Assembly (NCBI RefSeq): GCF_024138125.1
Contig: NZ_CP099993.1
Location: 620,001-684,000, forward strand
Direction: 5' to 3'
Length of the DNA: 64,000 bases
Source: Halorussus salilacus
GTDB taxonomy: Archaea; Halobacteriota; Halobacteria; Halobacteriales; Haladaptataceae
Shown here: one piece after another, positions 546-15,069 of the stretch
How the letters are laid out: each line of letters opens with the position of its first letter
Numbering within the stretch: position 1 is the first letter of the stretch
Position numbers and translations under genes: made by a program
Notes under the pieces: generated by a model
What the model saw: only the letters and a program-made list of their open reading frames with translations
What the model was told of the DNA's origin: nothing
Database searches by the model: none

Positions 546-2030
546 TCAGTCCTCCGGTTCGGCCACCGGCGGGTCGAAGGAGGTCTCGCCGCCGGGCGCG
601 TACTCACTGTCGGCGCTGGGAGCAGACTGGATCGTCTCGAAGAAGCGGTCGGTGACGACGTCGCTGACCACGTCGGCGAGCGACGACTCCTCCTCGGCTT
701 CGACCTCGCCGAGCAGGCCCAGCGAGATTTGCGCGCCCGCCATGTCGGCGTGGCCGCCCGCGCTCCCGATCTGGCCGAACGCCGCCCGAAGGGTCTCGCC
801 GAGGTCGACGTCGGTGCCCCGCGCCCGCGCGGAGACGTACACCGTGCCGTCCCTGAAGCCGTAGACCAGCGTGGTCGTGACCCGGTCCATGTTGAGCAGC
901 TGGTCGGCCGCCTGCGCCAGCGCGTCGCGGTCCGACAGCGACCCCACGCACGAGGCCAGCACGGTGCCCTCGATGCGGCGGTTGCGGATGGCCCGGGCGA
1001 TGGTCTCGAAGGTGTCGGCGCTGACCGACGGGCTCTCGACTCGCTCCAGCATCGACACGTCGGCGCGGGGCAGGAGGTAGGAGGCCGCCTCGAAGTCGGC
1101 GGTCGAGACCTCCCGCGAGAAGTCCTTGGTGTCGACCCGGATGCCGTACAGCAGGCCGGTCGCCACGTCCTCGGTGAGGTCGATACCGAGGCGCTGGAGG
1201 TGCTCGGTCAGCAGGGTCGAGGTCGCGCCCACGTCGCTGCGGAGGTCGACGAACGTCGCCTCGACCGGTTCCTTGGGCGGGTGGTGGTCGACGACCACGT
1301 CGACAGGGGTGTCGGGGGGCAACTGGTCGTTGACGCCCGGCCGGGAGTGGTCGACGAGCGCGATGCCCGCGAACTCCGAGAGGTCTGCGCCCGCCTCGAA
1401 GTTCCGCAGGTCGATGTCGAGGAGGTTGACGAACGCCCGGTTCTCCTGGTGGGAGATGTCGCCGAAGTAGCAGGCCTCGGCCTCGACCCCGACCGCCTCG
1501 GCGACCCGCGAGAGCGCCACCGCGCTCGCGATGGCGTCGGGGTCGGGGTTGTCGTGCATGAACACCCCCAGCTTGCCGTCGATCCGCCGGAGGGTCCGGC
1601 GGAGGTTCGCGGTCCGGAACGCCGCCTCGCCGGTCGAGACCGACAGGGCCTTCTCGGCGAGCGCCCGCTTGGGGTCGACCACCTTCGACGCGAGTCGGGC
1701 CATCGCGTGCCTGTCCTCGTCGCTGGGGTCGTCGCCGACGAACGCGAGGATGTAGGCGTTCGGAAACAGGTCGGCCGCGAGTTCGGTCGCCCGGCGGTTG
1801 GCCGACGACTCGCCGCCCGCCACGACCACGACCTCCGGGTCGTCGGCCGCCTCGCCGACCACCTCGGGGTCGGTCGGGTCGGCCCGGCGCGCCGAGACCC
1901 CCTCGTCGCGCAGCGCGTCGACCCGATTCTCGCTCTCGTCGACTACCAGCAGGCTCCCGGGCGCGTCGGCTATCGCCTCGATGAGCGCCTGTCCGTCGGT
2001 GCCACACCCCAGCACCAGCCGGGAGACCAT
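546..2030 (-). CDS. DHH-family phosphoesterase with N-terminal RCK/TrkA-N-like domain
   Basis: This 494-residue protein has an N-terminal Rossmann-like RCK fold (residues 1 to about 120, VLGCGTDGQALIEAI) joined to a DHH/DHHA1 phosphoesterase. Metal-binding motifs are visible at about 157-165 (MHDNPDPDA), 227-229 (DHS) and 247-250 (VDHH), and a glycine-rich GSAGGHADMAGA motif near residue 425 is typical of DHHA1. Members of this family cleave cyclic dinucleotides or short oligonucleotides. The RCK part suggests ligand control by a nucleotide or cofactor, which is inference. The C-terminal tail is acidic. A TATA-like CTTTAGG lies about 30 bases upstream of the ATG, which fits a nearly leaderless transcript. 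Confidence 0.88.
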   Translation of the reverse strand: MVSRLVLGCGTDGQALIEAIADAPGSLLVVDESENRVDALRDEGVSARRADPTDPEVVGEAADDPEVVVVAGGESSANRRATELAADLFPNAYILAFVGDDPSDEDRHAMARLASKVVDPKRALAEKALSVSTGEAAFRTANLRRTLRRIDGKLGVFMHDNPDPDAIASAVALSRVAEAVGVEAEACYFGDISHQENRAFVNLLDIDLRNFEAGADLSEFAGIALVDHSRPGVNDQLPPDTPVDVVVDHHPPKEPVEATFVDLRSDVGATSTLLTEHLQRLGIDLTEDVATGLLYGIRVDTKDFSREVSTADFEAASYLLPRADVSMLERVESPSVSADTFETIARAIRNRRIEGTVLASCVGSLSDRDALAQAADQLLNMDRVTTTLVYGFRDGTVYVSARARGTDVDLGETLRAAFGQIGSAGGHADMAGAQISLGLLGEVEAEEESSLADVVSDVVTDRFFETIQSAPSADSEYAPGGETSFDPPVAEPED

Positions 2031-2496
2031 TCTAGCCCGCGGTTTCGCTTGCTCGGCCTAAAGTCTACCGTCTACGATACGACCCGAGAATCCGGCGGGA
2101 AAAATCCGTCTTCGGGCGTCACTTCTCTGCTCGACCGTCCTTCCGAGACCAGAGAAACGGGCGCAGGGATGTCGAAGCTAGCGACTCCCTCCCGGTGAGA
2201 GGACCGCACCGCGACCGCGCGCACCACGAAGACCGTGTCGTCTCGCCATTCCGTCCCTCGGTCACGGCGCGCGCTGGCGCGGCCCTGTGCCGCGCCATCG
2301 GTCGCGCGAGGGATGAGTGAGCGACTGGAAGGAGCGAGCGAATCGGCTGGGGAGGCGTGTGGTTGCGGTCTCATAGGTATCGGGAGTAGCTAGCGTCACG
2401 TCGAGCAATCCCGTCGAATCACGTCGAGCAATTCTCCCGACTCGACCGTTCCAAAAAATCCGCGGAAACCGAGGTCTGCGAACCGGTTCGGCGAGC
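2031..2496. other. Intergenic region, no convincing gene
   Basis: This 466-base gap separates the DHH gene from nuoN. Short open frames cross it, but they are rich in Arg, Ser and Pro and lack the acidic composition and codon bias of the neighbours. The segment at about 2,290-2,370 is GC-rich and low in complexity. At 2396-2430 the 14-base word TCACGTCGAGCAAT is present twice, 21 bases apart. The right end holds the likely nuo terminator. Confidence 0.5.
2447..2462 (-). terminator. Possible T-tract terminator of the nuo operon
   Basis: On the minus strand, about 40 bases after the nuoN stop, the sequence reads CCGCGGATTTTTTGG, with six consecutive T residues at 2458-2453. T-rich tracts without a strict hairpin are the usual archaeal termination signal. 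No experimental support is available here. Confidence 0.4.
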
Positions 2497-3978
2497 CTAC
2501 GCCACGAGCGCCCCGGCGGCGCTCTGGGCGAACTCCCAGACCGGGGCGAACCCGGGCAGGAGCAGGACGGTGGCGACTGCGGCCGCCACGATGGCGGCGT
2601 AGAGGCCGACCGGCTTGGACTCGATGTCGAACTCCCGGGTCGGCTCCTCGATCCACATCGCCTTGACGACCCGCGAGTAGTAGTACAGCGACAGCGCGCT
2701 GTTGATGGCACCGACCGCCGCGAGCCACCAGAAGCCCGCGCCGACCGCGCCCGCGAACAGGAAGTACTTGCTCAGGAAGCCGCCGAACGGCGGGAGCCCA
2801 GCGAGGCTGAACATGAACACGGTCATCGCGACGCACGCGAACGGGGCCTGCTTGGCGAGGCCGTTGTAGTCCTCGAACGTGCGGCCGACCGACCAGTACT
2901 CCGCCAGCGCGATGAACAGGAACGCGCCGGTGTTCATGAAGCCGTAGACCAGCAGGTGGGTCATGCTCGCGCCCAGCACGAACTGGTCGTTGCCGCCCGA
3001 CAGCGCCGCCAGCCCGATGAGGGCGTAGCCAGCGTGGCCGACCGACGAGTACGCGAGCATCCGCTTGACCGTGTCCTGCGTGGCGGCGGCGAAGTTACCG
3101 AGCGTCATCGTGACGACGGCGAGAATCTGGACCGCGAGCACCCAGTCGATGCTCGCGAGGTACGCATCCACGGGGAACGCCACGGTGAACACCCGGAACG
3201 CCACGGCGAACCCGGCGGCCTTGGAGGCCGACGAGAGGAACGCCGAGATGGGCGCGGGCGCGCCCTCGTAGGCCTCGGGGGCCCAGAAGTGGAACGGGAC
3301 GCTCGCGGTCTTGAACGCGAACCCGCCCAGTATCATCAGGACGCCGATGCCCAGCACGCCCGTCAGACCCTCGGTTCCGGCCGCGCCAGCGACCTCGGGG
3401 AGCAACAGCGAGCCGCTGGCCCCGTAGACGAGGCTGATACCGTACGCGAGGATCGACGACGACAGCGCGCCGATGAGGAAGTACTTGAGTCCCGCCTCGA
3501 CGCTACCGCGGTTCTTCTTGAGTATCGCGACCAGCGCGTACGACGGCAGGCTGGAGAGTTCGAGGCTGACGAACACCACCGCGAGGCTGTTCGCGGCGGG
3601 CATCAGCGTCATCCCGGTCGCCGCCAGCATCACCAGCGCGTAGTACTCGCCCTGATAGGAGTGGTCGCGCATGTAGTCGTAACTGGCGACCGAGACCAGC
3701 GCGGTCACGCTCGCGAACACGAACGCGAAGAACAGCGTCATCGTGTCCACCACGAGCGTGTCGGCGTAGAGGCTGATGGGCTCGTCGCCGGTCCCCGCGA
3801 GCAGGAACCACACCGCGAACCCGGCCGCGGCGAGCGACCCGAGGACCGAGACGCCCGCGAGCAACGCGCGGTTCTCCGAGTCGGGGTCGATGCTATCGAT
3901 CAGGAACAACACCAGTGCGGTGGCGACGAGCACCAGCGTCGGTGCCAGCGCCGCCCACGCGGGAAGTTGGTACGCCAT
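2497..3978 (-). CDS. nuoN: NADH dehydrogenase-like complex I subunit N
   Basis: A 493-residue antiporter-like proton-pumping subunit with about 14 membrane helices and the ND2/NuoN pattern. The core stretch FKTASVPFHFWAPEAYEGAP and the following helix with a buried lysine (SSASKAAGFAVAF) are both present. It is the last gene of the nuo operon. Its ATG follows the nuoM stop with no gap, so the two are translationally coupled. It sits in the cytoplasmic membrane at the inner part of the membrane arm. Confidence 0.96.
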   Translation of the reverse strand: MAYQLPAWAALAPTLVLVATALVLFLIDSIDPDSENRALLAGVSVLGSLAAAGFAVWFLLAGTGDEPISLYADTLVVDTMTLFFAFVFASVTALVSVASYDYMRDHSYQGEYYALVMLAATGMTLMPAANSLAVVFVSLELSSLPSYALVAILKKNRGSVEAGLKYFLIGALSSSILAYGISLVYGASGSLLLPEVAGAAGTEGLTGVLGIGVLMILGGFAFKTASVPFHFWAPEAYEGAPAPISAFLSSASKAAGFAVAFRVFTVAFPVDAYLASIDWVLAVQILAVVTMTLGNFAAATQDTVKRMLAYSSVGHAGYALIGLAALSGGNDQFVLGASMTHLLVYGFMNTGAFLFIALAEYWSVGRTFEDYNGLAKQAPFACVAMTVFMFSLAGLPPFGGFLSKYFLFAGAVGAGFWWLAAVGAINSALSLYYYSRVVKAMWIEEPTREFDIESKPVGLYAAIVAAAVATVLLLPGFAPVWEFAQSAAGALVA

Positions 3979-5508
3979 TCAGACACCACCTCCGGCTTCG
4001 GGAACCAGCGGATTCACGGCGTCCTGAATCATCTCGAAGAAGATGTTCGGGTCGACGCCCAGCAGGATGACCAGCAGGACGAGCACCACGAGGGGTGCCA
4101 CGTCGTGGAACGCCGCCGGGCCGACCTCGTAGTCGGTCTCGACCTCGAACTCGCCGAACAGCGTGCGCTGCATCGCGAGCAGCAGGTAGCCCGCGACGAT
4201 GACGATGCCGAACATCGCGGCCGCGGTGAACGCCACCGACCCCTCGAACGCGCCGAACGCGCCGAGGAAGATGAACAGCTCAGCGGCGAACCCGGCCATC
4301 AGCGGCAGGCCCATGTAGCCGAACGCGCCCGCGACGAACACCGCCACGGTGATGGGCATCTTGCTCGCCAGCCCGGACATGTCCGAGACCATCCGGGTGT
4401 GGGTCGTGTTGTAGATGACGCCGACAGCCATGAACATCAGCCCCGAGATGAGGCCGTGAGCGACCATCTGGAAGGTCGCGCCGCCCAGCCCGTAGACGGT
4501 GTAGGCGACGAGACCGAGGATGACGTACCCCATCGACGACACCGAGGAGTACGCCACGATTCGCTTCAAGTCGGTCTGGGCCAGCGCCAGCATCGCGCCG
4601 TAGATGACGCTCACCACCGCGAAGATGGCGATGAGCTGGGCGTTCTGCTGGGCCACGTCCGGTAGCATCGTGAAGTTGAACCGGAGCAGGGCGTAGGTGC
4701 CCATCTTCAGCAGGACTCCGGCCAGCATGATCGAGACCGGCGTCGGGGCCTCGACGTGGGCGTCCGGCAGCCACGTATGGAACGGGACGACCGGCACCTT
4801 GACCGCGAAGCCGACGAACATCGCGACGAACGCCGCGAGCTTCAGCGTCTCCGGGCCGACCGGACCGAGCGAACCGAGTTCGCCCGCGCGCAGCGCCTGC
4901 GCGACCGTCGGCATGTCGAAGGTGGTGACCGAGTCGCCGAGCCCGAACACGAGCGCGACGAACCCGATGAACAGCGCGAGGCTCGCGATGTTCGTGTAGA
5001 CGAACATCTTGATCGCCGCGTACTTGCGGCGCGGCCCGCCCCAGACGCCGATGAGGACGTACATCGGGACCAGCACCATCTCCCAGAAGACGAACCAGAC
5101 GAAGAAGTCCAGCGCCGTGAAGACGCCGATGAGGCTCGCCTCCAGGAAGAGCATCAGGCCGTAGAACTGGCTCTGGCGCTCCTGAATCGGCGTCCACGAC
5201 GCCAGCAGGGCCAGCGACGTCAGCACCGTGGTGAGCGCGACCAGCGGCATGCCGATGCCGTCGAGGCCGACGTGCCAGTTGAGGCTGTAGGGTCCGGCCA
5301 CGACCCACTCGGTGTTCGTCTCGAACGCCAGCGTGCTACCCGACAGCAGGGCGTTTCCGCTGGCCTCGTACGTGCTGTACATCCAGAGGCTCCCGACCAG
5401 CGGGAGCAGGCTGAGCGCGAACGCGAGCTTCCCCGCCACCTTGTTCGGCGCGAGGAAGACCGCGGCCGCGCTCGCCAACGTTACCGCGATGAGTGCTTCG
5501 ATCCACAT
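3979..5508 (-). CDS. nuoM: NADH dehydrogenase-like complex I subunit M
   Basis: A 509-residue antiporter-like subunit. Motifs include FWEMVLVPMYVLIGVWGG, with the essential glutamate in transmembrane helix 5, then VPVVPFHTWLPDAHVEAPTP and a helix with the conserved lysine (LAGVLLKMGTYALLR). It forms part of the proton-pumping membrane arm. It lies between nuoL and nuoN, and adjacent genes touch with no spacer. Confidence 0.97.
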   Translation of the reverse strand: MWIEALIAVTLASAAAVFLAPNKVAGKLAFALSLLPLVGSLWMYSTYEASGNALLSGSTLAFETNTEWVVAGPYSLNWHVGLDGIGMPLVALTTVLTSLALLASWTPIQERQSQFYGLMLFLEASLIGVFTALDFFVWFVFWEMVLVPMYVLIGVWGGPRRKYAAIKMFVYTNIASLALFIGFVALVFGLGDSVTTFDMPTVAQALRAGELGSLGPVGPETLKLAAFVAMFVGFAVKVPVVPFHTWLPDAHVEAPTPVSIMLAGVLLKMGTYALLRFNFTMLPDVAQQNAQLIAIFAVVSVIYGAMLALAQTDLKRIVAYSSVSSMGYVILGLVAYTVYGLGGATFQMVAHGLISGLMFMAVGVIYNTTHTRMVSDMSGLASKMPITVAVFVAGAFGYMGLPLMAGFAAELFIFLGAFGAFEGSVAFTAAAMFGIVIVAGYLLLAMQRTLFGEFEVETDYEVGPAAFHDVAPLVVLVLLVILLGVDPNIFFEMIQDAVNPLVPEAGGGV

Positions 5509-7548
5509 CTAGAACCAACCTCCCATGAGACCGAGGACGACGAGAAGGACGACGAGGCCCGTCGTCAGCAGGAAGGCGTAGTTGGTCACCACGCCCGACT
5601 GGACGCGCTTGATGCGGTCGCCACCGAACAGGCTCACGCTCGACACGCCGTTGACCACGCCGTCGATGACGCCCTGATCGAACTTGTCGGCGACGCGCGC
5701 GAGCGGGAGGGTGAGACCCGTCGCGAGCCAGACCTGGAACTCGTCCTGGTAGTAGTTGTTGAACAGCACCGTCTTGGCGCTGCCGAGCTTGTCGGTGTGC
5801 TCGACGGGGCTCGGAACGGCGTAGAGCTTCCACGCGAGTCCGGCACCCGCCAGCGCGAGCCCGAGCGAGACGCCCGCGCTCAGCAGTACCGTCGTCACCT
5901 CGCCGCCCACGTACGCCGACGAGTAGGGGATGAGGTCGGCGTAGTGGTGGGCGGTCAGCGCCTCGGGCCCGGCGTCGAGCCACTGGTGGAGGAAGTCGAT
6001 TCCCTCCACGCCGAGGACCTTCTGGACCGGCACCATGTTGACCAGTCCGGCCACCGCGGCCAGAACGCCCAGCACCGCGAGCGGGACCTTGACGTTCCAG
6101 CCCACGCCGTGGGGGTTCCGGGCGGTGTCGGTCCGGGGCTCGCCGTGGAAGGTCAGCGCGACCATCCGGAAGGTGTAGAACCCGGTGAAGAACACCGCGA
6201 GCAGACCCATCGCGTACGCCCCGAGCAACAGCGGGCTGTCGAGGCCGTGGATGAGCGCCTCGTAGAGCACCTCGTCCTTCGACCAGAAGCCCGAGAACGG
6301 GAGGATGCCCGCGAGCGCGAGCGACCCCGAGAGGAACGCGTAGTAGGTCACGGGCATCCGCTCTTTCAGGCCGCCCATGTCCCACATGTTCTCGTTGTGG
6401 TGCATCGCGATGATGACCGACCCGGCACCGAGGAACAGAAGCGCCTTGAAGAACGCGTGGGTCATCAGGTGGAAGGTCGCCGCGACGTAGCCGCCAGCGC
6501 CCAGCGCGAGCATCATGTACCCGTACTGGGAGATGGTCGAGTACGCCAGCACCTGCTTGATCTCCTTCTTGACGACGCCCATCGTGGCGGCGAACAGCGC
6601 GGTGAAGCCGCCGACGAACGCGATGAGCGCAAGCACCTGCGGGAGCAGGGCGTAGAACCCGTACATCCGCGCGACGAGGTAGACGCCCGCCGCGACCATC
6701 GTCGCGGCGTGGATGAGCGCCGAGACCGGGGTCGGGCCCTCCATCGCGTCCGGGAGCCAGGTGTGCAGCGGGAACTGGGCCGACTTGCCGACGACGCCGC
6801 CGAGCACCAGCAGTCCCAGCACCGAGAACCACGCCTCCGGGCCGAGCCCGAGGAACGTGGTGGCGCTCGCGTCGCCCGCGAGCGCCTGCTCGGCGAGGTG
6901 GGGGAACGACTCGCTCCCGGCGAACGCCGTGGTGCCGAAGGTGGCGAACACGCCGACCACGCCGATGAGGAAGAAGTAGTCACCGAACCGGGTGACCAGG
7001 AACGCCTTCTTCGCGGCGCTCGGCGGGCCGTCCTCGCGGAACCAGAAGCCGATGAGCAGGAACGAACACAGGCCCACCAGCTCGAAGAACATGAACGCCA
7101 TCAGCAGGTTGTCGGCGAACACGAACGAGAGCATGCTCGCGGTGAACAGCCCGAGACCGGCGTAGTACCGGGGCAGGCCGGTCTCGCCCTCGTCGTTCAT
7201 GTAGCCGAGGCTGAAAACGTGGACGAGCAGGGCGATGAGCGAGACGATGACGAGCATCATCGTCGACAGCGGGTCGAGCAGGATACCGAAGTGGAGGTCG
7301 AACGCCGCCTCGCCGACCCCGGCGACCCACGTTATCGAGTCGTGGTACATCCCGTCGGACGCGCCCGAGACGGCCACGAACGCCCACACCGAGAGGACGA
7401 GCGACCCGGCGGTCGCGAGGATGCCGGGAATCGCGCCGCCCTTCGGGAGCAGTCGCGGGGCGAACGCGCCCACGAGCAGTGCGATCAGGAACGATACGAA
7501 CGGCAACGCCGCGATGGCCGGTGCCAGTTCGAAGGGGAGTGCTGCCAT
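5509..7548 (-). CDS. nuoL: NADH dehydrogenase-like complex I subunit L
   Basis: A 679-residue distal proton-pumping subunit. Diagnostic stretches are MFFELVGLCSFLLIGFWF (helix-5 glutamate), AQFPLHTWLPDAMEGPTPVS, and LIHAATMVAAGVYLVAR with its conserved histidine region. The C-terminus extends past the antiporter core and ends in a transmembrane helix, as expected for the long lateral helix of NuoL. The stop abuts the nuoM start; nuoK lies four bases upstream. Confidence 0.97.
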   Translation of the reverse strand: MAALPFELAPAIAALPFVSFLIALLVGAFAPRLLPKGGAIPGILATAGSLVLSVWAFVAVSGASDGMYHDSITWVAGVGEAAFDLHFGILLDPLSTMMLVIVSLIALLVHVFSLGYMNDEGETGLPRYYAGLGLFTASMLSFVFADNLLMAFMFFELVGLCSFLLIGFWFREDGPPSAAKKAFLVTRFGDYFFLIGVVGVFATFGTTAFAGSESFPHLAEQALAGDASATTFLGLGPEAWFSVLGLLVLGGVVGKSAQFPLHTWLPDAMEGPTPVSALIHAATMVAAGVYLVARMYGFYALLPQVLALIAFVGGFTALFAATMGVVKKEIKQVLAYSTISQYGYMMLALGAGGYVAATFHLMTHAFFKALLFLGAGSVIIAMHHNENMWDMGGLKERMPVTYYAFLSGSLALAGILPFSGFWSKDEVLYEALIHGLDSPLLLGAYAMGLLAVFFTGFYTFRMVALTFHGEPRTDTARNPHGVGWNVKVPLAVLGVLAAVAGLVNMVPVQKVLGVEGIDFLHQWLDAGPEALTAHHYADLIPYSSAYVGGEVTTVLLSAGVSLGLALAGAGLAWKLYAVPSPVEHTDKLGSAKTVLFNNYYQDEFQVWLATGLTLPLARVADKFDQGVIDGVVNGVSSVSLFGGDRIKRVQSGVVTNYAFLLTTGLVVLLVVLGLMGGWF

Positions 7549-7552
7549 CGTT

Positions 7553-7855
7553 TTACCACCTCATGGTTGTCGCTTTCGTCACGTCCACGTCTGCGAAGTT
7601 GCGATACAGCACGAGGATGATGCCGATCCCGATGGCCACCTCCGCGGCCGCCAGCGCGAGCGTGAACAGGCTGAACGTCTGTCCAGTCAGGTTGCCGTGG
7701 AACCGCGAGAACGCGACGAGATTGATGTTCGCGGCGTTGAGCAACAGCTCGACGCTCATCAGGAACAACAGCGCGTTCTTCCGCGTCAGGATGCCGAACA
7801 CGCCGATGCAGAACACGGCGGCCGACAGCAGGAGGTAGTACTCGATGGGTACCAT
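7553..7855 (-). CDS. nuoK: NADH dehydrogenase-like complex I subunit K
   Basis: A 100-residue protein with three membrane helices, the normal size for NuoK. The second helix carries the conserved glutamate (LFLMSVELLLNAANINLVAF) and the third another (LALAAAEVAIGIGIILVLYR); both belong to the membrane proton path. Its start overlaps the end of the upstream nuoJ2 by one base. Confidence 0.96.
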   Translation of the reverse strand: MVPIEYYLLLSAAVFCIGVFGILTRKNALLFLMSVELLLNAANINLVAFSRFHGNLTGQTFSLFTLALAAAEVAIGIGIILVLYRNFADVDVTKATTMRW

Positions 7856-8256
7856 CAGTCGTTCACCTCCTCGGCGTCGCGGTCGGTTCCGGCGGGCGTG
7901 CCCCCGTCGGTCGCGACTCGCTCCTCGGTCGCGTCTTCGTCGGCCGCGTCCGAGCGCAGCGCCGTCGTGATGACGCCGTCCTCGTCGCGTCGTGCCAGCA
8001 ACACCGCGCCGTCGAGCGCGGCGTCGAGCACCACCGCGATGACGAGGAACGCGACGAGGAAGCCCTCGCTCGGGATGGCGTCGGGGTGCTGGATGTTGAA
8101 CATCGCGTAGCCGATGCTTGCCGTGACGCCCGCGTCGCCCGCGAACTCCGCCGCGGGGTCGCCGAACGACGCGCGGACGAACACGACCGCCAGCACTGCG
8201 AACAGCGCGACGGCGGCCAGTCCCGGCAGCAAGCTACCTCTGTCTCGGTTGGTCAT
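7855..8256 (-). CDS. nuoJ2: NADH dehydrogenase-like complex I subunit J, C-terminal half
   Basis: A 133-residue protein with two to three membrane helices and an acidic, probably cytoplasmic C-terminal tail of about 45 residues. Bacterial NuoJ is one protein with five helices; here it is divided between this gene and the 8253-8522 gene, an arrangement known in haloarchaea. The helix ending in FLVAFLVIAVVLDAALDGAVLL matches the last helix of NuoJ. The ATG overlaps the preceding stop by four bases (ATGA), so the two halves are probably made in equal amounts. Confidence 0.88.
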   Translation of the reverse strand: MTNRDRGSLLPGLAAVALFAVLAVVFVRASFGDPAAEFAGDAGVTASIGYAMFNIQHPDAIPSEGFLVAFLVIAVVLDAALDGAVLLARRDEDGVITTALRSDAADEDATEERVATDGGTPAGTDRDAEEVND

Positions 8257-8522
8257 GCTTCGGTCACCTCCTCTTCAGTCTGTGCCTGGCGCGTCAACAT
8301 CACCGCGAACGTGATGAGGATGAGAACCCCGCCGACGTAGACGAGGATCTGCATCGCTGCGAGGAACTCCGCCTGCAGCATCACGTAGTGGACGGCGACG
8401 GAGAGCAGCGCGACACCCAACAGCAACGCGGAGTGCCACACGTCCCGCACCAGGACGACGCCCAGACTGCTCGCTATCGTGACGAGAGCGAACAGGCCGA
8501 ACGCGAGCGTCTCGTATACCAT
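8253..8522 (-). CDS. nuoJ1: NADH dehydrogenase-like complex I subunit J, N-terminal half
   Basis: Three membrane helices, with the NuoJ signature in the third (EFLAAMQILVYVGGVLILITFAVML), where the pi-bulge helix of complex I lies. I chose the ATG at 8522 (MVYETLAFG), which gives 89 residues; an in-frame GTG at 8531 would add three. A roughly 58-base spacer to nuoI is the largest gap in the operon and could hold a processing or internal initiation site. Confidence 0.9.
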   Translation of the reverse strand: MVYETLAFGLFALVTIASSLGVVLVRDVWHSALLLGVALLSVAVHYVMLQAEFLAAMQILVYVGGVLILITFAVMLTRQAQTEEEVTEA

Positions 8523-8580
8523 TTCAGTCACCTTGGATTTCTCAGAATCGCCCTTTTAAGGTTTCGAGATGGGCGTCTCG

Positions 8581-9042
8581 TTATTGGTAGTCTACCTCGC
8601 CTTCTCCCTCGCCGATCCACGCACCCCGGTCGGGTTCGCGGGATTCGAGGGGGTCGATGTCCTTGTACCAGGGGACGTTCTTCAACTGCTCTTTGTTGTA
8701 CACCAGATCGTCCTTGGTGTCGCCCGTGAACTCGAAGTTCTGGGTGAGCAGGATGGCGTCCACCGGGCAGACCTCCTCGCACAGCCGACAGTAGACGCAC
8801 TGGCCGATGTGGAGGTTGTACTGCTCGCCGTTGCGCTGGTCGTCCTGAACGATCTGGATGGTGTCGTTCGGACAGACGTTCTCGCACTGGCGACACCAGA
8901 TGCAGCGCTCCTGGCTGAACTTGTGGACGCCGCGGAACCGCGGGCTCACTTCGGGTGCCACGTCGGGGTACTCGACCGTGAACGTGGACCCGTCCAGTGC
9001 GTGCTTCAGCGTGGTTGCCATTGACTTGAGGACTCCGATCAT
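8581..9042 (-). CDS. nuoI: Complex I subunit I, two [4Fe-4S] ferredoxin
   Basis: A 153-residue iron-sulfur protein with two classic clusters, C47-C50-C53-C57 (CIWCRQCENVCP) and C82-C85-C88-C92 (CVYCRLCEEVCP). These correspond to N6a and N6b and pass electrons to NuoB. The ATG at 9042 overlaps the nuoH stop (TAATG). A longer open frame continues upstream but only as antisense-like shadow across nuoH, so the short form is right. Confidence 0.96.
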   Translation of the reverse strand: MIGVLKSMATTLKHALDGSTFTVEYPDVAPEVSPRFRGVHKFSQERCIWCRQCENVCPNDTIQIVQDDQRNGEQYNLHIGQCVYCRLCEEVCPVDAILLTQNFEFTGDTKDDLVYNKEQLKNVPWYKDIDPLESREPDRGAWIGEGEGEVDYQ

Positions 9043-10130
9043 TAGAGCATCACCCCGACGATGATGGCCGTGAGGATGAGATTGGCGAACGAAAGGACGA
9101 GCATGCCCTTCCAGCCGATCTCGATCAGCTGGTCGATCCGGACGCGCGGCACGGCCGACCGCGCCCACTGGGTGAACAGGAAGACCGCCCAGATCTTGAT
9201 GATGAACCAGACGAACCCTGGCAGTACCGGACCGGCCGGTCCGCCGAGGAACACGGTGGCGACGATGGCACCGCCGAGGAAGATGTGGATGAACTCGCCC
9301 ATGTAGAACAGGACGAAGTAGATGCTGGAGTACTCGGTCATGTACCCGGCGACGATCTCGGTCGGTGCTTCGGGGATGTCGAACGGGTTCCGCCCGACCT
9401 CCGCGAGGTTCGCGACCATGAACAGCACGAACGCGAACGGGTTCACGAAGGCGTACCACGACGGAATCGTTAGGCCGCCGAGGCTCACCAGCGGTTCGGC
9501 CTGCTGGGCGACGATTTCGCTCATCTGGAGCGTGCCCGCGAAGATGACGACCGACGCCGCGGTCACGATGAGCGGAATCTCGTACGCGATGTTCTGCGCG
9601 ATGGCGCGCAGACCGCCCATCAGCGAGTACTTGTTGCTCGAGGCGTACCCGGCCATCGCGAGCGCGAGGGTGGCGATGGAGGCCACCGCGAACACGAACG
9701 CGAGTCCGGTCTCGGGGTCGGCGATCTGGAGGTTGATTCCGAAGATCGACCCCATCGGGATGACCGCGAACCCGAGCAGCGCCGAGAGCGCGAGGATGAT
9801 CGGCGCGAGGTCGTACGCCGGACGGTCGACCCCGTCCGGGATGATGAGCTCCTTCGCCATGAGCTGGACCGCCGAGGCGGGGATGATGAGCAGGCCCGCC
9901 GGTCCCACGCGGTTGACGGCGATGCGGTCGGTGAACGCCGCGGTTATCTTGCGTTTGGCCCACGGACCGGCGACGCCAGCCTGCGCGAGCATGATGTTCG
10001 CGACGACGAACGCCGCGAGGAAGCCCGCGATGGCCTCCTGCCAGATGGCCATCTCGGAGCCGAACAGCAGGCGGCCGATGGTCTCGGGGAGCAGGGGGTC
10101 GGATTGGCCCTGCAGGGGGACGAACGTCAT
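9042..10130 (-). CDS. nuoH: Complex I subunit H
   Basis: A 362-residue membrane subunit with about eight helices that joins the peripheral arm to the membrane arm and lines the quinone channel. Family motifs include RIAVNRVGPAGLL near residue 70, a helix with PTEIVAGYMTEYSSIYF (the E-rich quinone-site loop), and WARSAVPRVRIDQLIEIGWK near the C-terminus. It overlaps nuoCD by four bases and nuoI by one. Confidence 0.96.
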   Translation of the reverse strand: MTFVPLQGQSDPLLPETIGRLLFGSEMAIWQEAIAGFLAAFVVANIMLAQAGVAGPWAKRKITAAFTDRIAVNRVGPAGLLIIPASAVQLMAKELIIPDGVDRPAYDLAPIILALSALLGFAVIPMGSIFGINLQIADPETGLAFVFAVASIATLALAMAGYASSNKYSLMGGLRAIAQNIAYEIPLIVTAASVVIFAGTLQMSEIVAQQAEPLVSLGGLTIPSWYAFVNPFAFVLFMVANLAEVGRNPFDIPEAPTEIVAGYMTEYSSIYFVLFYMGEFIHIFLGGAIVATVFLGGPAGPVLPGFVWFIIKIWAVFLFTQWARSAVPRVRIDQLIEIGWKGMLVLSFANLILTAIIVGVML

Positions 10131-11788: not shown

Positions 11789-12489
11789 GGCGAGTCAGCC
11801 CAGTTGTAGCGCATGACGAGGTCCTCCTCGTCGATCTCCTTCGCGAGCTTCTCGACCAGCTCGTCCTGTTCGAGGTCGCCGAACTGCTCCAGTTCGTACG
11901 GCTTGACGGTCACGGGACTGCTCTCGCCGTTGGCGATCCGCTCCTGGAGCTTGACGACGCCGTAGATGAGGGCCTCGGGGCGGGGCGGGCAACCGGGGAC
12001 GTGGATGTCCACCGGGATGACCTCCTCGGCACCCTTGATGACGTTGTAGCCCTCCTGGAACGGGCCGCCGGAGATGGCACACGACCCCATGTTCACGACG
12101 AACTTGGGCTCGGGCATCTGGTCGTACACCCGCTTCATCCGCGGGGCGAACTTCGTGACGATGGTGCCGGGCACGATCATCACGTCGGCCTGCCGGGGGG
12201 AGGCCCGCGGCACGCCCGACCCGAAGCGGTCGAGGTCGTGTTTGACCGCGTAGGTGTGCATCATCTCGATGCTACAGCACGCGATACCGAACTGTAGCAT
12301 GAACATCGACGACCCCCGCACCCAGTTCATGAACTTGTCGAACTTCGTGAGGATGAACGGCGAGGAGCCGAACGCCTCCCGTAGCTTCGAGTTGAACCGG
12401 TTGTCGACGCCCGGGCCCATCCGGGCCTCTCGGGTCTTGCTCTGGGGTTCTGTACTCCCGCTGATCGCGTCTCGTGGTTCGTTGCTCAT
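11785..12489 (-). CDS. nuoB: Complex I subunit B (cluster N2)
   Basis: A 234-residue protein carrying the terminal [4Fe-4S] cluster N2. Ligands are C71-C72 (CCSIEMM), C137 ([10 protein letters not shown]) and C167 (PGCPPRPEA), the normal set. The N-terminal 30 residues are a hydrophilic extension. It reduces the quinone together with the D domain. It overlaps nuoA by four bases. Confidence 0.97.
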
Positions 12490-12899
12490 TGTCTATCGAC
12501 GCTCCGTTGGGATTCGGTCGGGTTCTTGACCCACTCGACGGCACCCTGTCGCCACGCCCAACCGAGACCGACGACGAGGATGCCGATGAACGCCAGCATC
12601 GGATACAGTGCGCCTGCGAGTCCGACGCCTTCCATCGAGACCGCCTCCCGGTAGATGACCGTCCAGGGGAAGATGAGGACCGTCTCGATGTCGAACACGA
12701 CGAACAGTAGCGCGACCATGTAGTACTGGATGTTAAAGCGGATGCGCGTCCCGCCCGTCGGAACCTCACCGCTCTCGTACACGGTGGTTTTCCCTTTTTC
12801 GGGCACGCTCGGCCGGAGCAGGCTGGATACCGTCATCATCCCGAGCGGTATCAACAGCCCCACCAGCGCCAGCGCGCCAATAGCTATCCACGGATTCAT
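12486..12899 (-). CDS. nuoA: Complex I subunit A (first gene of nuo operon)
   Basis: A 137-residue protein with three membrane helices. The loop between helices 1 and 2 carries the NuoA signature (YESGEVPTGGTRIRFNIQYY), followed by a helix with the conserved acidic pair (FVVFDIETVLIFPW). It opens an eleven-gene unit, A-B-CD-H-I-J1-J2-K-L-M-N. No genes for the NADH-oxidising module (E, F, G) are present, so the electron donor is probably not NADH through NuoF. This is the usual haloarchaeal situation. Confidence 0.96.
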   Translation of the reverse strand: MNPWIAIGALALVGLLIPLGMMTVSSLLRPSVPEKGKTTVYESGEVPTGGTRIRFNIQYYMVALLFVVFDIETVLIFPWTVIYREAVSMEGVGLAGALYPMLAFIGILVVGLGWAWRQGAVEWVKNPTESQRSVDRQ

Positions 12900-13157: not shown

Positions 13158-13244
13158 TTACTCGCCGCCCTCGCGGAACCCGGGGGTCCCCTTCTCGTGG
13201 AGTCGCCGGGACACATCTTCATTAGTCACCCCGATCTTGGTCAT
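13158..13244 (-). pseudogene. purE: Duplicated 3' end of purE (fragment)
   Basis: The minus-strand reading VSRRLHEKGTPGFREGGE followed by a stop matches the C-terminus of the intact purE nearby (VSRDLHEKGTPGFREE). The two share an exact 17-base word, GTCCCCTTCTCGTGGAG, at 13186-13202 and 14462-14478, in the same orientation. Upstream of the homology the frame stays open to an ATG at 13244, giving a 28-residue ORF, but those first residues are probably fortuitous. I read this as a displaced purE 3' end marking the far boundary of the inserted halocin segment. Confidence 0.7.
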
Positions 13245-13411
13245 TTACGCGACAAGAAATATTATCGAGGTTTTGAATTGGCGCCGAGGAAAACCGAACA
13301 GCCTCCGCTTCGGTTGGCATGCAAAGTGCGTACAAACTTTCTGAATCAATCCGCGAGAGGGCTATTTAATAACTGAGTTTTCATTATTTATGCTAAATAA
13401 ATTAATAACAC

Positions 13412-13420
13412 TTATTTTTA
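13412..13420 (+). promoter_or_regulatory. TATA box of the halocin gene
   Basis: TTATTTTTA is centred about 28 bases upstream of the ATG at 13444. This is the distance for a leaderless haloarchaeal transcript and favours that start over the in-frame ATG at 13390. A second AT-rich box (CTATTTAATAA near 13362) could serve an earlier start. Confidence 0.55.
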
Positions 13421-13443
13421 CTATTCACAGATTCGTGATTGCA

Positions 13444-14193
13444 ATGGTGAAATCAAACCGTAGAAAGCTACTAAAGGCAGTAAGTACGGGAGTAGCGGCC
13501 AGTTCGGGGTTCGGACTCGGATCGACCAGTGTTGCCGGTTCTGAGGGCGATGGACCAGACCTTACGGAACTCGACGGTGAGCGGAAGAACCAACTCAGAG
13601 CGAAGGCAGTGAAGTCCCCCGAATTCAAGACGCTGAAACGTTATGTGAAGAAAACCTACGATGTTCGGCCGAGCATCTCGGATGCCAGCGCGTATAAGGT
13701 AGAAAACGGGAATGAGACACGGTACGGCGTTGAGATACCGCTTCCCGGTATCAAAGACTCCATTCACTCCGCGATAGCCGTGTTCGTTCGCGAGGGTGCA
13801 GTGATAGGAGCGTCTGGGAGTACGGCGAAAGTTGATGGCGAACAAGTAGTCCGATATACGCGGTTCAAAGCTGAGGACGGAGCAGTAACCGCCGAAAGTA
13901 TCTCGCTAGCCACGGAAGAAGATAGGAGGACTATTCTCAAGGACTATGGACCGTCAGGCCCACATCTCGCCGGTCAATGTAGCGACTGCGAATGGGCCAT
14001 CAGTCGCCTCTGTGGCTGGGGTTGTGGCATTTCGGCGGCCACCTTCTGTGGATTGATAGGTGTCGCCTATCCCATCGCTGGCATCGGATGCGGTTCGCTA
14101 TTTGCGCTGTACTGCTACGAACTCGACGCCTCCGGATCGTGTTACTACAAGGGGAGCGCGAAAGCGGATTGCGAATTTATGGGCTACTGCTGA
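13444..14193 (+). CDS. Halocin C8-like microhalocin precursor
   Basis: From the ATG at 13444 the product is 249 residues. It begins with a twin-arginine signal (NRRKLLKAVSTG), followed by a hydrophilic middle part (about 35-170) and a Cys-rich C-terminal domain of about 75 residues. That domain has ten cysteines; counted from the first (C179) they fall at 1, 4, 12, 16, 24, 38, 46, 55, 65 and 71. As I recall it, mature halocin C8 has ten cysteines in almost the same spacing, including the hydrophobic run between Cys 5 and Cys 6 (GLIGVAYPIAGIGC). In halocin C8 the precursor is cleaved, and the N-terminal part (HalI) gives immunity while the C-terminal peptide kills other haloarchaea. The same division is inferred here. 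Codon use is less GC-rich than in the neighbours, suggesting transfer. A longer start at 13390 would put the Arg pair too far from the N-terminus. Confidence 0.88.
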   Translation: MVKSNRRKLLKAVSTGVAASSGFGLGSTSVAGSEGDGPDLTELDGERKNQLRAKAVKSPEFKTLKRYVKKTYDVRPSISDASAYKVENGNETRYGVEIPLPGIKDSIHSAIAVFVREGAVIGASGSTAKVDGEQVVRYTRFKAEDGAVTAESISLATEEDRRTILKDYGPSGPHLAGQCSDCEWAISRLCGWGCGISAATFCGLIGVAYPIAGIGCGSLFALYCYELDASGSCYYKGSAKADCEFMGYC

Positions 14194-14241
14194 ACTCGAC
14201 CCCACCCGTAATCTACCCGTAATTTTCAATGTTAAGCGTAA

Positions 14242-14418
14242 ATGAAAGCTGGCATGGGATTGAGAGTGGGTAAGTCGAAGCGGAATCTCGTCTTGCTAGG
14301 TCAGTTCGTCGGCGTTGCCGCGTTGATCTGGGTGTTATACGGGTCCCTCGTCGAGAGTGTAATCGCCGGAGTGGTGACGGTCGCCCTCATGTACGCGCTA
14401 TTCTTTAGAAGCTCGTAA
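14242..14418 (+). CDS. Small two-helix membrane protein beside the halocin gene
   Basis: This 58-residue protein starts MKAGMGLRVGKSKRN and then has two hydrophobic segments (about 16-33 and 37-55), ending FFRSS. The positive N-terminus predicts both ends inside. It follows the halocin gene on the same strand after 48 bases containing a short direct repeat (ACCCGTAAT). I do not recognise the family. Its place in the cassette suggests a role in export or self-protection, but that is inference only. Confidence 0.6.
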   Translation: MKAGMGLRVGKSKRNLVLLGQFVGVAALIWVLYGSLVESVIAGVVTVALMYALFFRSS

Positions 14419-14439
14419 ACCGCCAGTCCGGAGTTACGG

Positions 14440-15069
14440 TTATTCCTCTCGGAATCCCGGCGTCCCCTTCTCGTGGAGGTCCCGCGAGACCTCCGCGACG
14501 CCCTCCTGCAGGTCGTCGTGGTACTCGACCAGTCGCTCGCGGAGGTCGTCGTGCTGGCGGGCGAGCATCTGGACCGCCGACAGCGCGGCGTTGAACGACT
14601 TGCCAGCGTCCACCGCGACGATGGGCGCACCGGTCGGCATCCCCACGACGGAGGGCAGGGACTTCTCCTGGACCGGCACCCCGACGACCGGCAGGGGGTA
14701 CGCCAGCGAGGCGGTCATGTTCGGCAGGTCGGCCGACTTGCCGCCCGCACCCGCGATTATCACGTCGAGCCCGCGCTCCTCGGCGGTCTCGGCGTAGGCG
14801 TACATGAGTTCGGGGGTGCGGTGGGCCGACACCACGTACGTCTCGAAGGTGAATCGGGCCTCGGGCGGGTCGTCGTAGTCGGTCACCTCCTCGAAGCCCA
14901 GTTCAGTCAGCGCGTCGTAGGCCCCGGGTCGGCCGTCCTCGGACCCGGCCATCACGTCGAGGTCCGAGTCGCTCCCCATCACGATGCCGATTTCGGGTGT
15001 GTCCTCGGGGTCCCTGTCGCGCTCTGCCTCGGCTCGCAGGTCGTCGATGAGTCTCTGGAGTTCGGTCAT
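14440..15069 (-). CDS. purE: N5-carboxyaminoimidazole ribonucleotide mutase
   Basis: A 209-residue PurE that converts N5-CAIR to CAIR in purine synthesis. The phosphate-binding motif GIVMGSDSDLDVM (about 27-39), the catalytic VVSAHRTPELM with its histidine, and the loop IAGAGGKSADLPNM are all present. It is longer than the usual 160 residues. An insertion of about 20 residues (GSEDGRPGAYDAL) lies before the SAHRTP motif, and there is a C-terminal helix ending HEKGTPGFREE. Its ATG overlaps the purK stop by four bases, so the two genes form one unit. Its 3' end is the boundary of the halocin island. Confidence 0.95.
   Translation of the reverse strand: MTELQRLIDDLRAEAERDRDPEDTPEIGIVMGSDSDLDVMAGSEDGRPGAYDALTELGFEEVTDYDDPPEARFTFETYVVSAHRTPELMYAYAETAEERGLDVIIAGAGGKSADLPNMTASLAYPLPVVGVPVQEKSLPSVVGMPTGAPIVAVDAGKSFNAALSAVQMLARQHDDLRERLVEYHDDLQEGVAEVSRDLHEKGTPGFREE

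What the first reader, a model, noticed from the sequence alone, without database searches (positions are those of the whole stretch)
13444..14193. A halocin C8-like antimicrobial precursor in a compact cassette
The C-terminal domain has ten cysteines whose spacing (1, 4, 12, 16, 24, 38, 46, 55, 65, 71) follows halocin C8 as I remember it, after a Tat signal and a hydrophilic putative immunity part. The sequence in between differs strongly from halocin C8, so this would be a new member. The usual export and regulatory genes of a halocin locus are not seen nearby; only a 58-residue membrane peptide accompanies it.
Basis: partly seen in the sequence, partly recalled or inferred. Interest (0 to 1): 0.82.

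Follow-up and report, generated by a model that had tools for sequence, protein, structure and literature searches.

The report
Halocin C8-like toxin in inserted cassette
A salt-loving archaeon carries a small, recently acquired DNA cassette encoding a distant relative of the antimicrobial peptide halocin C8 and, next to it, a tiny membrane protein that may protect the producer; the peptide family is known, but the pairing and the way the cassette sits on the end of a housekeeping gene are informative.

Summary
ORF 13444-14193 (249 aa) has a Tat-type signal, a middle domain and ten C-terminal cysteines spaced exactly as reported. It is a divergent but real member of the halocin C8 family: TIGR04449 E=7e-5; 43.3 bits against a profile of other members, with 0 of 5000 fixed-cysteine shuffles as high. 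Its middle domain is distantly related to the halocin C8 immunity part, including the predicted helix-loop-helix. Eight of ten cysteine positions equal halocin C8; the last two are shifted by one.

(1) The 58-aa two-helix membrane peptide is not incidental. Such a small membrane gene directly follows 18 of 43 halocin C8-like gene clusters but only 8 of 533 control genes (p=1e-16), in several unrelated sequence families. It is absent from the halocin C8 clade itself. I read it as a separate immunity partner (inference). (2) The pair sits in a 1.3-kb low-GC insertion at the 3' end of purE. A displaced native purE tail lies on the far side and an atypical tail is joined to purE; relatives have empty sites. 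Two other halocin cassettes show similar gene-end duplications.

New member of a known family; activity, disulfides and immunity are untested.

The parts
13444..14193 (+). Halocin C8-like precursor, 249 aa
   Evidence: TIGR04449 match; full-length homologues annotated 'halocin C8-like domain-containing protein' on Halobacterium and Haloferax plasmids
13444..13542 (+). Tat-type signal sequence (MVKSNRRKLLKAVSTGVAASSG...)
   Evidence: twin-arginine motif read from the sequence; weak match to TIGR02811 Tat-target model, E 0.013
13543..13962 (+). N-terminal (HalI-like) domain of the precursor: predicted helix-loop-helix then beta sheet
   Evidence: PF22862 E 0.097, below cut-off; own HalI profile 15.8 bits, E 3e-5; AlphaFold2 pLDDT about 72-94 over most of it
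13576..13659 (+). Predicted helix-loop-helix at the start of the mature N-terminal domain
   Evidence: helices 12-24 and 26-39 of the model, pLDDT about 90; F28 and L31 invariant in 9 homologues
13978..14190 (+). C-terminal ten-cysteine halocin domain (71 aa)
   Evidence: predicted as four helices, pLDDT 73
14242..14418 (+). 58-aa two-helix membrane peptide, 48 bp downstream; candidate immunity partner
   Evidence: coding by composition; same position and architecture in 18 of 43 family clusters vs 8 of 533 control genes; no sequence relative found
13158..13214 (-). Displaced stub of the purE 3' end (VSRRLHEKGTPGFREGGE*), left direct repeat
   Evidence: 34 bp at 88% to the purE end; SRRLHE is the form in all 15 same-genus purE genes examined; sequence
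14440..14490 (-). purE 3' end now joined to purE (VSRDLHEKGTPGFREE*), right direct repeat, probably brought by the cassette
   Evidence: differs from 15 of 15 relatives; the SRD form found in only one other of 391 genomes
13215..13443 (+). AT-rich upstream region (39% GC) with TATA-like TATTTAATAA at about 13363
   Evidence: GC; the TATA-like box is by eye only
12486..12899 (-). nuoA, left flank (host)
   Evidence: adjacent to purE without the cassette in same-genus genomes
14440..15069 (-). purE, right flank (host gene and insertion target, convergent with the cassette)

Best explanation
This is a horizontally acquired two-gene halocin cassette. The first gene encodes a halocin C8-family precursor that is exported by the Tat pathway. 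It is probably cut outside the cell by a secreted subtilisin-like protease, releasing a disulfide-rich hydrophobic peptide of about 71-76 residues that damages other haloarchaea at the membrane. The producer is protected by the 58-aa membrane peptide, by the HalI-like N-terminal part of the precursor, or by both; I favour a contribution of the membrane peptide. The cassette arrived on DNA carrying the 3' end of another strain's purE and recombined at the purE 3' end, leaving purE intact with a replaced tail and the old tail stranded on the far side. Shown: family membership, gene pairing across the family, and insertion with a duplicated purE end. Inferred: Tat export, cleavage, killing, immunity, route of recombination.
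For: Domain match, invariant cysteines, 0/5000 fixed-Cys shuffles. HalI-like N-terminal domain with predicted helix-loop-helix. Small multi-TM gene immediately downstream in 18/43 clusters vs 8/533 control genes, p=1e-16; vs 4/165 low-GC control genes, p=7e-11; vs 0/43 upstream of the same genes, p=8e-7. Partner genes in related pairs change most at third codon positions. Several unrelated partner families. Lowest GC of any 1.2 kb in the window, 51.5% vs median 67%. purE and nuoA adjacent, without cassette, 261-645 bp apart, in 13 same-genus genomes. purE 3'-end direct repeat. Eight S8-family peptidase matches in the genome. Two comparable insertions elsewhere.
Against: No activity, processing or disulfide data. 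Identity to halocin C8 over the domain is about 31%, and the window domain is a long branch in the family tree. The 58-aa peptide has no demonstrable sequence relative, so its link to the other partners is by position and architecture only. In halocin C8 one gene is reported to give both production and immunity, so a second gene is not required. An antisense small two-TM ORF lies downstream in 5 of 43 clusters, which shows the background is not zero. The insertion route is unproven and the donor was not found.
Confidence: 0.62

Rival explanations
1. Halocin C8 mode only: the N-terminal part of the precursor gives immunity, as HalI does for halocin C8, and the 58-aa peptide does something else (processing, anchoring, or nothing).
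For: The N-terminal domain is homologous, though weakly, and keeps the predicted helix-loop-helix; the title of Mei et al. 2008 (cited in PMC11509114) says this motif is essential for HalI immunity. In the sampled family, HalI-type members lack the two-TM partner, so a partner is not always needed.
Against: The window N-terminal domain scores only 15.8 bits against a HalI profile, whereas the HalI group scores 55-351 bits. The membrane-gene pairing is strong across the family.
Confidence: 0.3
2. A Tat-exported cysteine-rich protein with a non-killing role (signal or surface protein) that shares the fold.
For: To my knowledge only halocin C8 and near relatives have been tested; the window member is distant (about 31% identity).
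Against: Strain-specific low-GC cassette with a small membrane partner, hypervariable sequence around fixed cysteines, patchy presence (43 of 391 genomes): all typical of antagonism genes.
Confidence: 0.12
3. A remnant or an immunity-only cassette: the halocin gene is not expressed, or the peptide is inactive.
For: Recently acquired, divergent, no regulator or transporter nearby.
Against: Frame intact, all ten cysteines, Tat-type signal and partner gene kept.
Confidence: 0.1
4. The purE end duplication arose by simple target duplication (as proposed for restriction-modification genes) or by a lost integrase, not by homologous recombination with donor purE DNA.
For: Insertion with long target duplication is described for restriction-modification systems (PMC3031569, citing Nobusato 2000). 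The repeat is short, as for an integrase attachment site.
Against: The two copies differ at 9 of 45 aligned bases (my count), mostly synonymous, and the copy joined to purE is the one unlike all 15 relatives. A fresh duplication would give identical copies. No integrase in the cassette.
Confidence: 0.35

Closest known systems
Halocin C8 (HalC8/ProC8, Natrinema/Haloterrigena; NCBIfam TIGR04449)
   Same: Tat-type signal, HalI-like N-terminal domain, C-terminal ten-cysteine domain with eight of ten identical spacings, similar CGLIGxxxPIAGxxC core
   Different: About 31% identity in the domain, strongly divergent N-terminal part, last two cysteines shifted by one, separate 58-aa membrane gene, no regulator-like or ABC-permease-like gene near by as in the N. 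altunense locus
Halocin C8-like proteins of Halobacterium and Haloferax plasmids (e.g. WP_010904171.1 on pNRC200)
   Same: Full-length similarity, about 25% identity over 82-90% of the protein
   Different: On plasmids, in other gene contexts
Small two-helix immunity peptides of circular and leaderless bacteriocins (from own knowledge)
   Same: About 50-60 aa, two membrane helices, next to the structural gene
   Different: No sequence relationship shown; function not tested here
Restriction-modification genes inserted with long target duplication
   Same: Compact antagonism-type module flanked by a duplicated host sequence, no integrase
   Different: Here the repeats are a gene 3' end and differ between the copies, pointing to donor DNA

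Membership tests
Halocin C8 family (TIGR04449) | C-terminal domain matches the family model | tested here: met
   E 7.2e-5, 23.7 bits (cut-off 24) by hmmscan; 26.5 bits, over the cut-off, in the genome search; 43.3 bits on an independent profile
Halocin C8 family (TIGR04449) | Ten conserved cysteines | tested here: met
   Ten of ten invariant in an alignment of 13 members; spacing equal to HalC8 at eight of ten
Halocin C8 family (TIGR04449) | Tat-type signal sequence | tested here: inconclusive
   SNRRKLLK motif and hydrophobic stretch present by eye; only a weak model match (E 0.013); no signal predictor at hand
Halocin C8 family (TIGR04449) | HalI-type N-terminal immunity domain (PF22862) | tested here: inconclusive
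   13.7 bits vs cut-off 27; own HalI profile 15.8 bits, E 3e-5; helix-loop-helix predicted
Halocin C8 family (TIGR04449) | Five disulfide bonds in the mature peptide | not testable with these tools
   Model of the domain pLDDT 73, no Cys-Cys distances; no solved relative
Halocin C8 family (TIGR04449) | Proteolytic release of the C-terminal peptide | not testable with these tools
   S8-family peptidase genes are present in the genome, but no cleavage data
Halocin C8 family (TIGR04449) | Antimicrobial activity against haloarchaea | not testable with these tools
   Needs an assay
Single-gene production and immunity (halocin C8 mode) | No separate immunity gene | tested here: inconclusive
   A separate small membrane gene is present, but its function is unknown

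The most novel reading that the evidence does not exclude
Across the halocin C8 family, self-immunity normally rests on a separate, fast-diversifying small membrane protein encoded directly downstream, and halocin C8, the textbook 'one gene for production and immunity', is the exceptional clade. Some of these precursor-plus-partner cassettes spread between haloarchaea without an integrase by recombining at the 3' ends of host genes, to which they lie tail to tail.
Probability: 0.3. Interest if true: 0.66.

Novelty: new member of a known kind. Interest (0 to 1): 0.46.

Why it matters
[quoted passage not shown] A family-wide small membrane partner gives named candidate immunity genes that can be tested directly, and the purE insertion shows how such cassettes can be exchanged. 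The window member adds one divergent peptide to test; by itself it is an ordinary family extension.

Tried and rejected
A single homologous family of partner peptides: rejected for the window peptide. A profile of other partners did not single it out from shuffles, and the best pairwise match was BLAST E 0.005 to the peptide following G053. 3'-end insertion as a general rule: not supported; only a few clusters show strong flanking repeats, and a translated search for them was swamped by low-complexity matches. The 19-bp repeats around the dnaK/dnaJ cassette look like a shared coding motif, not an insertion scar. tRNA targets: none found in the ten loci scanned. Viral carriage: two viral-contig scans found nothing. 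Solved relatives by sequence or fold: none. Donor of the cassette: not found among 391 genomes. Alternative start at 13390: rejected because it puts a hydrophobic stretch before the twin arginine. Makarova et al. 2019 (mBio 10:e00715-19), which I recall as expanding the halocin C8 family, could not be read, so I cannot say whether the membrane partners were already described.

Full report
Observation. The window reads ...nuoB, nuoA (- strand), a gap of about 1540 bp, purE, purK (- strand). In the gap, on the + strand, lie ORF 13444-14193 (249 aa) and, 48 bp further, ORF 14242-14418 (58 aa). Halocin C8 as encoded by Natrinema altunense AJ2 has 1, 4, 12, 16, 24, 38, 46, 55, 64, 70, so eight positions are identical and two are shifted by one.

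Family membership. NCBIfam TIGR04449 (halocin C8-like domain) matches residues 179-249 over the full model with E 7.2e-5 and 23.7 bits, 0.3 bit under the curated cut-off. The genome search scores 26.5 bits, over the cut-off. Because cysteine spacing alone could drive this, I kept the cysteines fixed and shuffled the rest. The real domain scores 43.3 bits on a profile of 37 other members, against a mean of 10.1 (sd 5.3, maximum 33.6) for 5000 shuffles. All ten cysteines are invariant across 13 diverse members; identity to halocin C8 is 31%. Full-length relatives on Halobacterium and Haloferax plasmids are annotated as halocin C8-like. The genome has a second, stronger family member at C1:2,024 kb. 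In the class sample 43 of 391 genomes have the domain.

N-terminal part. Pfam PF22862 (Halocin 8-like N-terminal domain) is only hinted at (E 0.097, 13.7 bits, cut-off 27). A profile built from six HalC8-type N-terminal regions finds it with 15.8 bits, E 3e-5. The AlphaFold2 model from nine sequences gives two helices joined by a short loop (pLDDT about 90) followed by a beta sheet; the C-terminal domain is not resolved in that model. Folded alone with ten sequences, the domain is four helices at pLDDT 73. Mei et al. [quoted passage not shown] Disulfides could not be tested. No solved relative was found by sequence or fold.

The 58-aa peptide. It has two predicted membrane helices and codon-position GC of 0.53/0.40/0.72; 0 of 3000 dinucleotide shuffles of its stretch give a comparable ORF. 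I collected family members from whole genomes and clustered them at 60% identity into 43 clusters. In 18 clusters a 40-140-aa ORF with at least two hydrophobic helices starts within -20 to +130 bp of the halocin stop, on the same strand. The same rule finds 8 of 533 genes in 40 random 20-kb stretches of genomes from the same set (Fisher p 1e-16). Against 165 low-GC control genes (4 hits) p is 7e-11. Upstream of the halocin genes the count is 0 of 43 (p 8e-7), and antisense downstream it is 5 of 43. Related partners diverge mostly at third codon positions. The partners fall into several families with no detectable similarity to each other; the window peptide matches none convincingly. Gene calling for the controls was heuristic and transmembrane prediction was a hydropathy window, so the exact numbers are rough; the effect size is large.

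Who lacks the partner. The eight clusters with a strong HalI-type N-terminal domain (over 50 bits) have no two-TM partner, against 18 of the other 35 (Fisher p 0.013). In the domain tree the HalI group is one side of a branch (support weak, 57/0), so this is probably a single evolutionary event and the p-value is not independent evidence. Still, the pattern suggests that halocin C8, the clade in which immunity was studied, differs from much of its family. Sun et al. [quoted passage not shown]

The insertion. In 13 other genomes of the genus purE and nuoA are 261-645 bp apart with no cassette; two others have different insertions at the same junction (2.3 and 9.5 kb), and two have the genes on different contigs. 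The cassette stretch 13220-14438 is 51.5% GC, the lowest 1.2 kb of the window (median 67%). On the left, at 13158-13214, lies the - strand stub VSRRLHEKGTPGFREGGE*, a purE 3' end. purE itself ends VSRDLHEKGTPGFREE*. All 15 relatives examined have VSRRLHE or VSRRLHG, and the SRD form occurs in one other of 391 genomes under the pattern used. The copies share 34 bp at 88%; over 45 aligned bases I count nine differences, mostly synonymous (sequences). So the stub looks native and the tail now on purE looks imported with the cassette. Repeats this strong flank only 0.25% of random intervals.

Similar anatomy elsewhere. G187 has its halocin gene between an ABC-permease-like gene and a displaced 401-bp copy of that gene's 3' end (88%). 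G339 has a halocin between proC and proB with copies of the proC 3' end on both sides and a third on proC itself (proC and proB identified from the translations). In all three the cassette is tail to tail with the target gene. A fourth cluster (G053) has a 27-bp perfect repeat that I did not follow up. This is not a general rule: most cassettes show no such repeat.

Mechanism and status. Most likely: Tat export, extracellular cleavage, release of a hydrophobic disulfide-rich peptide that attacks haloarchaeal membranes, and self-protection by the membrane peptide and/or the HalI-like part. Support for cleavage by a secreted protease is by analogy: halocin H4 is activated by halolysin HlyR4, while the protease for HalC8 is unidentified (PMC12893001); this genome has eight S8-peptidase matches. 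Halocin C8 is reported to round and lyse cells (PMC6759562). None of this was tested for the window protein. My estimates: family member 0.95; functional halocin 0.75; membrane peptide is an immunity partner 0.55; imported purE tail 0.7.

Novelty. The precursor is a new, divergent member of a known family. The membrane-partner statistics and the gene-end insertions may be new, but Makarova et al. 2019 (mBio 10:e00715-19), which I recall as surveying this family, was not available.

Noticed in passing
G000:C1 about 2,023,900-2,024,800 (L002, L036, L072): The same genome carries a second halocin C8-like precursor (about 289 aa) with ten cysteines, a 16-residue tail after the last cysteine and no small membrane gene behind it.
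   Followed up: partly
L088 (G013) and L087 (G015), purE-nuoA junction: Two relatives carry other insertions at this junction: 9.5 kb with two P450-like genes and a methyltransferase-like gene, and 2.3 kb with a lipoprotein-like gene. The junction looks like an insertion hot spot.
   Followed up: partly
L150 (G339) 1517-9203: proC and proB are separated by 7.7 kb with three copies of the proC 3' end, as if two elements had inserted in tandem; one holds a halocin gene.
   Followed up: partly
L165 (G187) 4939-8789: A halocin gene is flanked by a 401-bp displaced 3' end of an ABC-permease-like gene whose C-terminal end resembles that of the permease-like gene beside halocin C8 in L108 (2190-3794).
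   Followed up: partly
L152 (G053): A perfect 27-bp direct repeat flanks a halocin C8-like gene and its partner.
   Followed up: no
L050, L051, L072, L042, L048, L049: A subgroup of halocin C8-like precursors ends 16-17 residues after the last cysteine in a conserved tail (..I.VDIPYF), of unknown use.
   Followed up: no
L068 / L166 (G204): A 706-aa protein carries a halocin C8-like domain at its C-terminal end.
   Followed up: no
L031, L043, L046 (G202, G060, G117): One halocin cassette family sits between dnaK and dnaJ (the dnaK-dnaJ identification is by eye from the translations).
   Followed up: no
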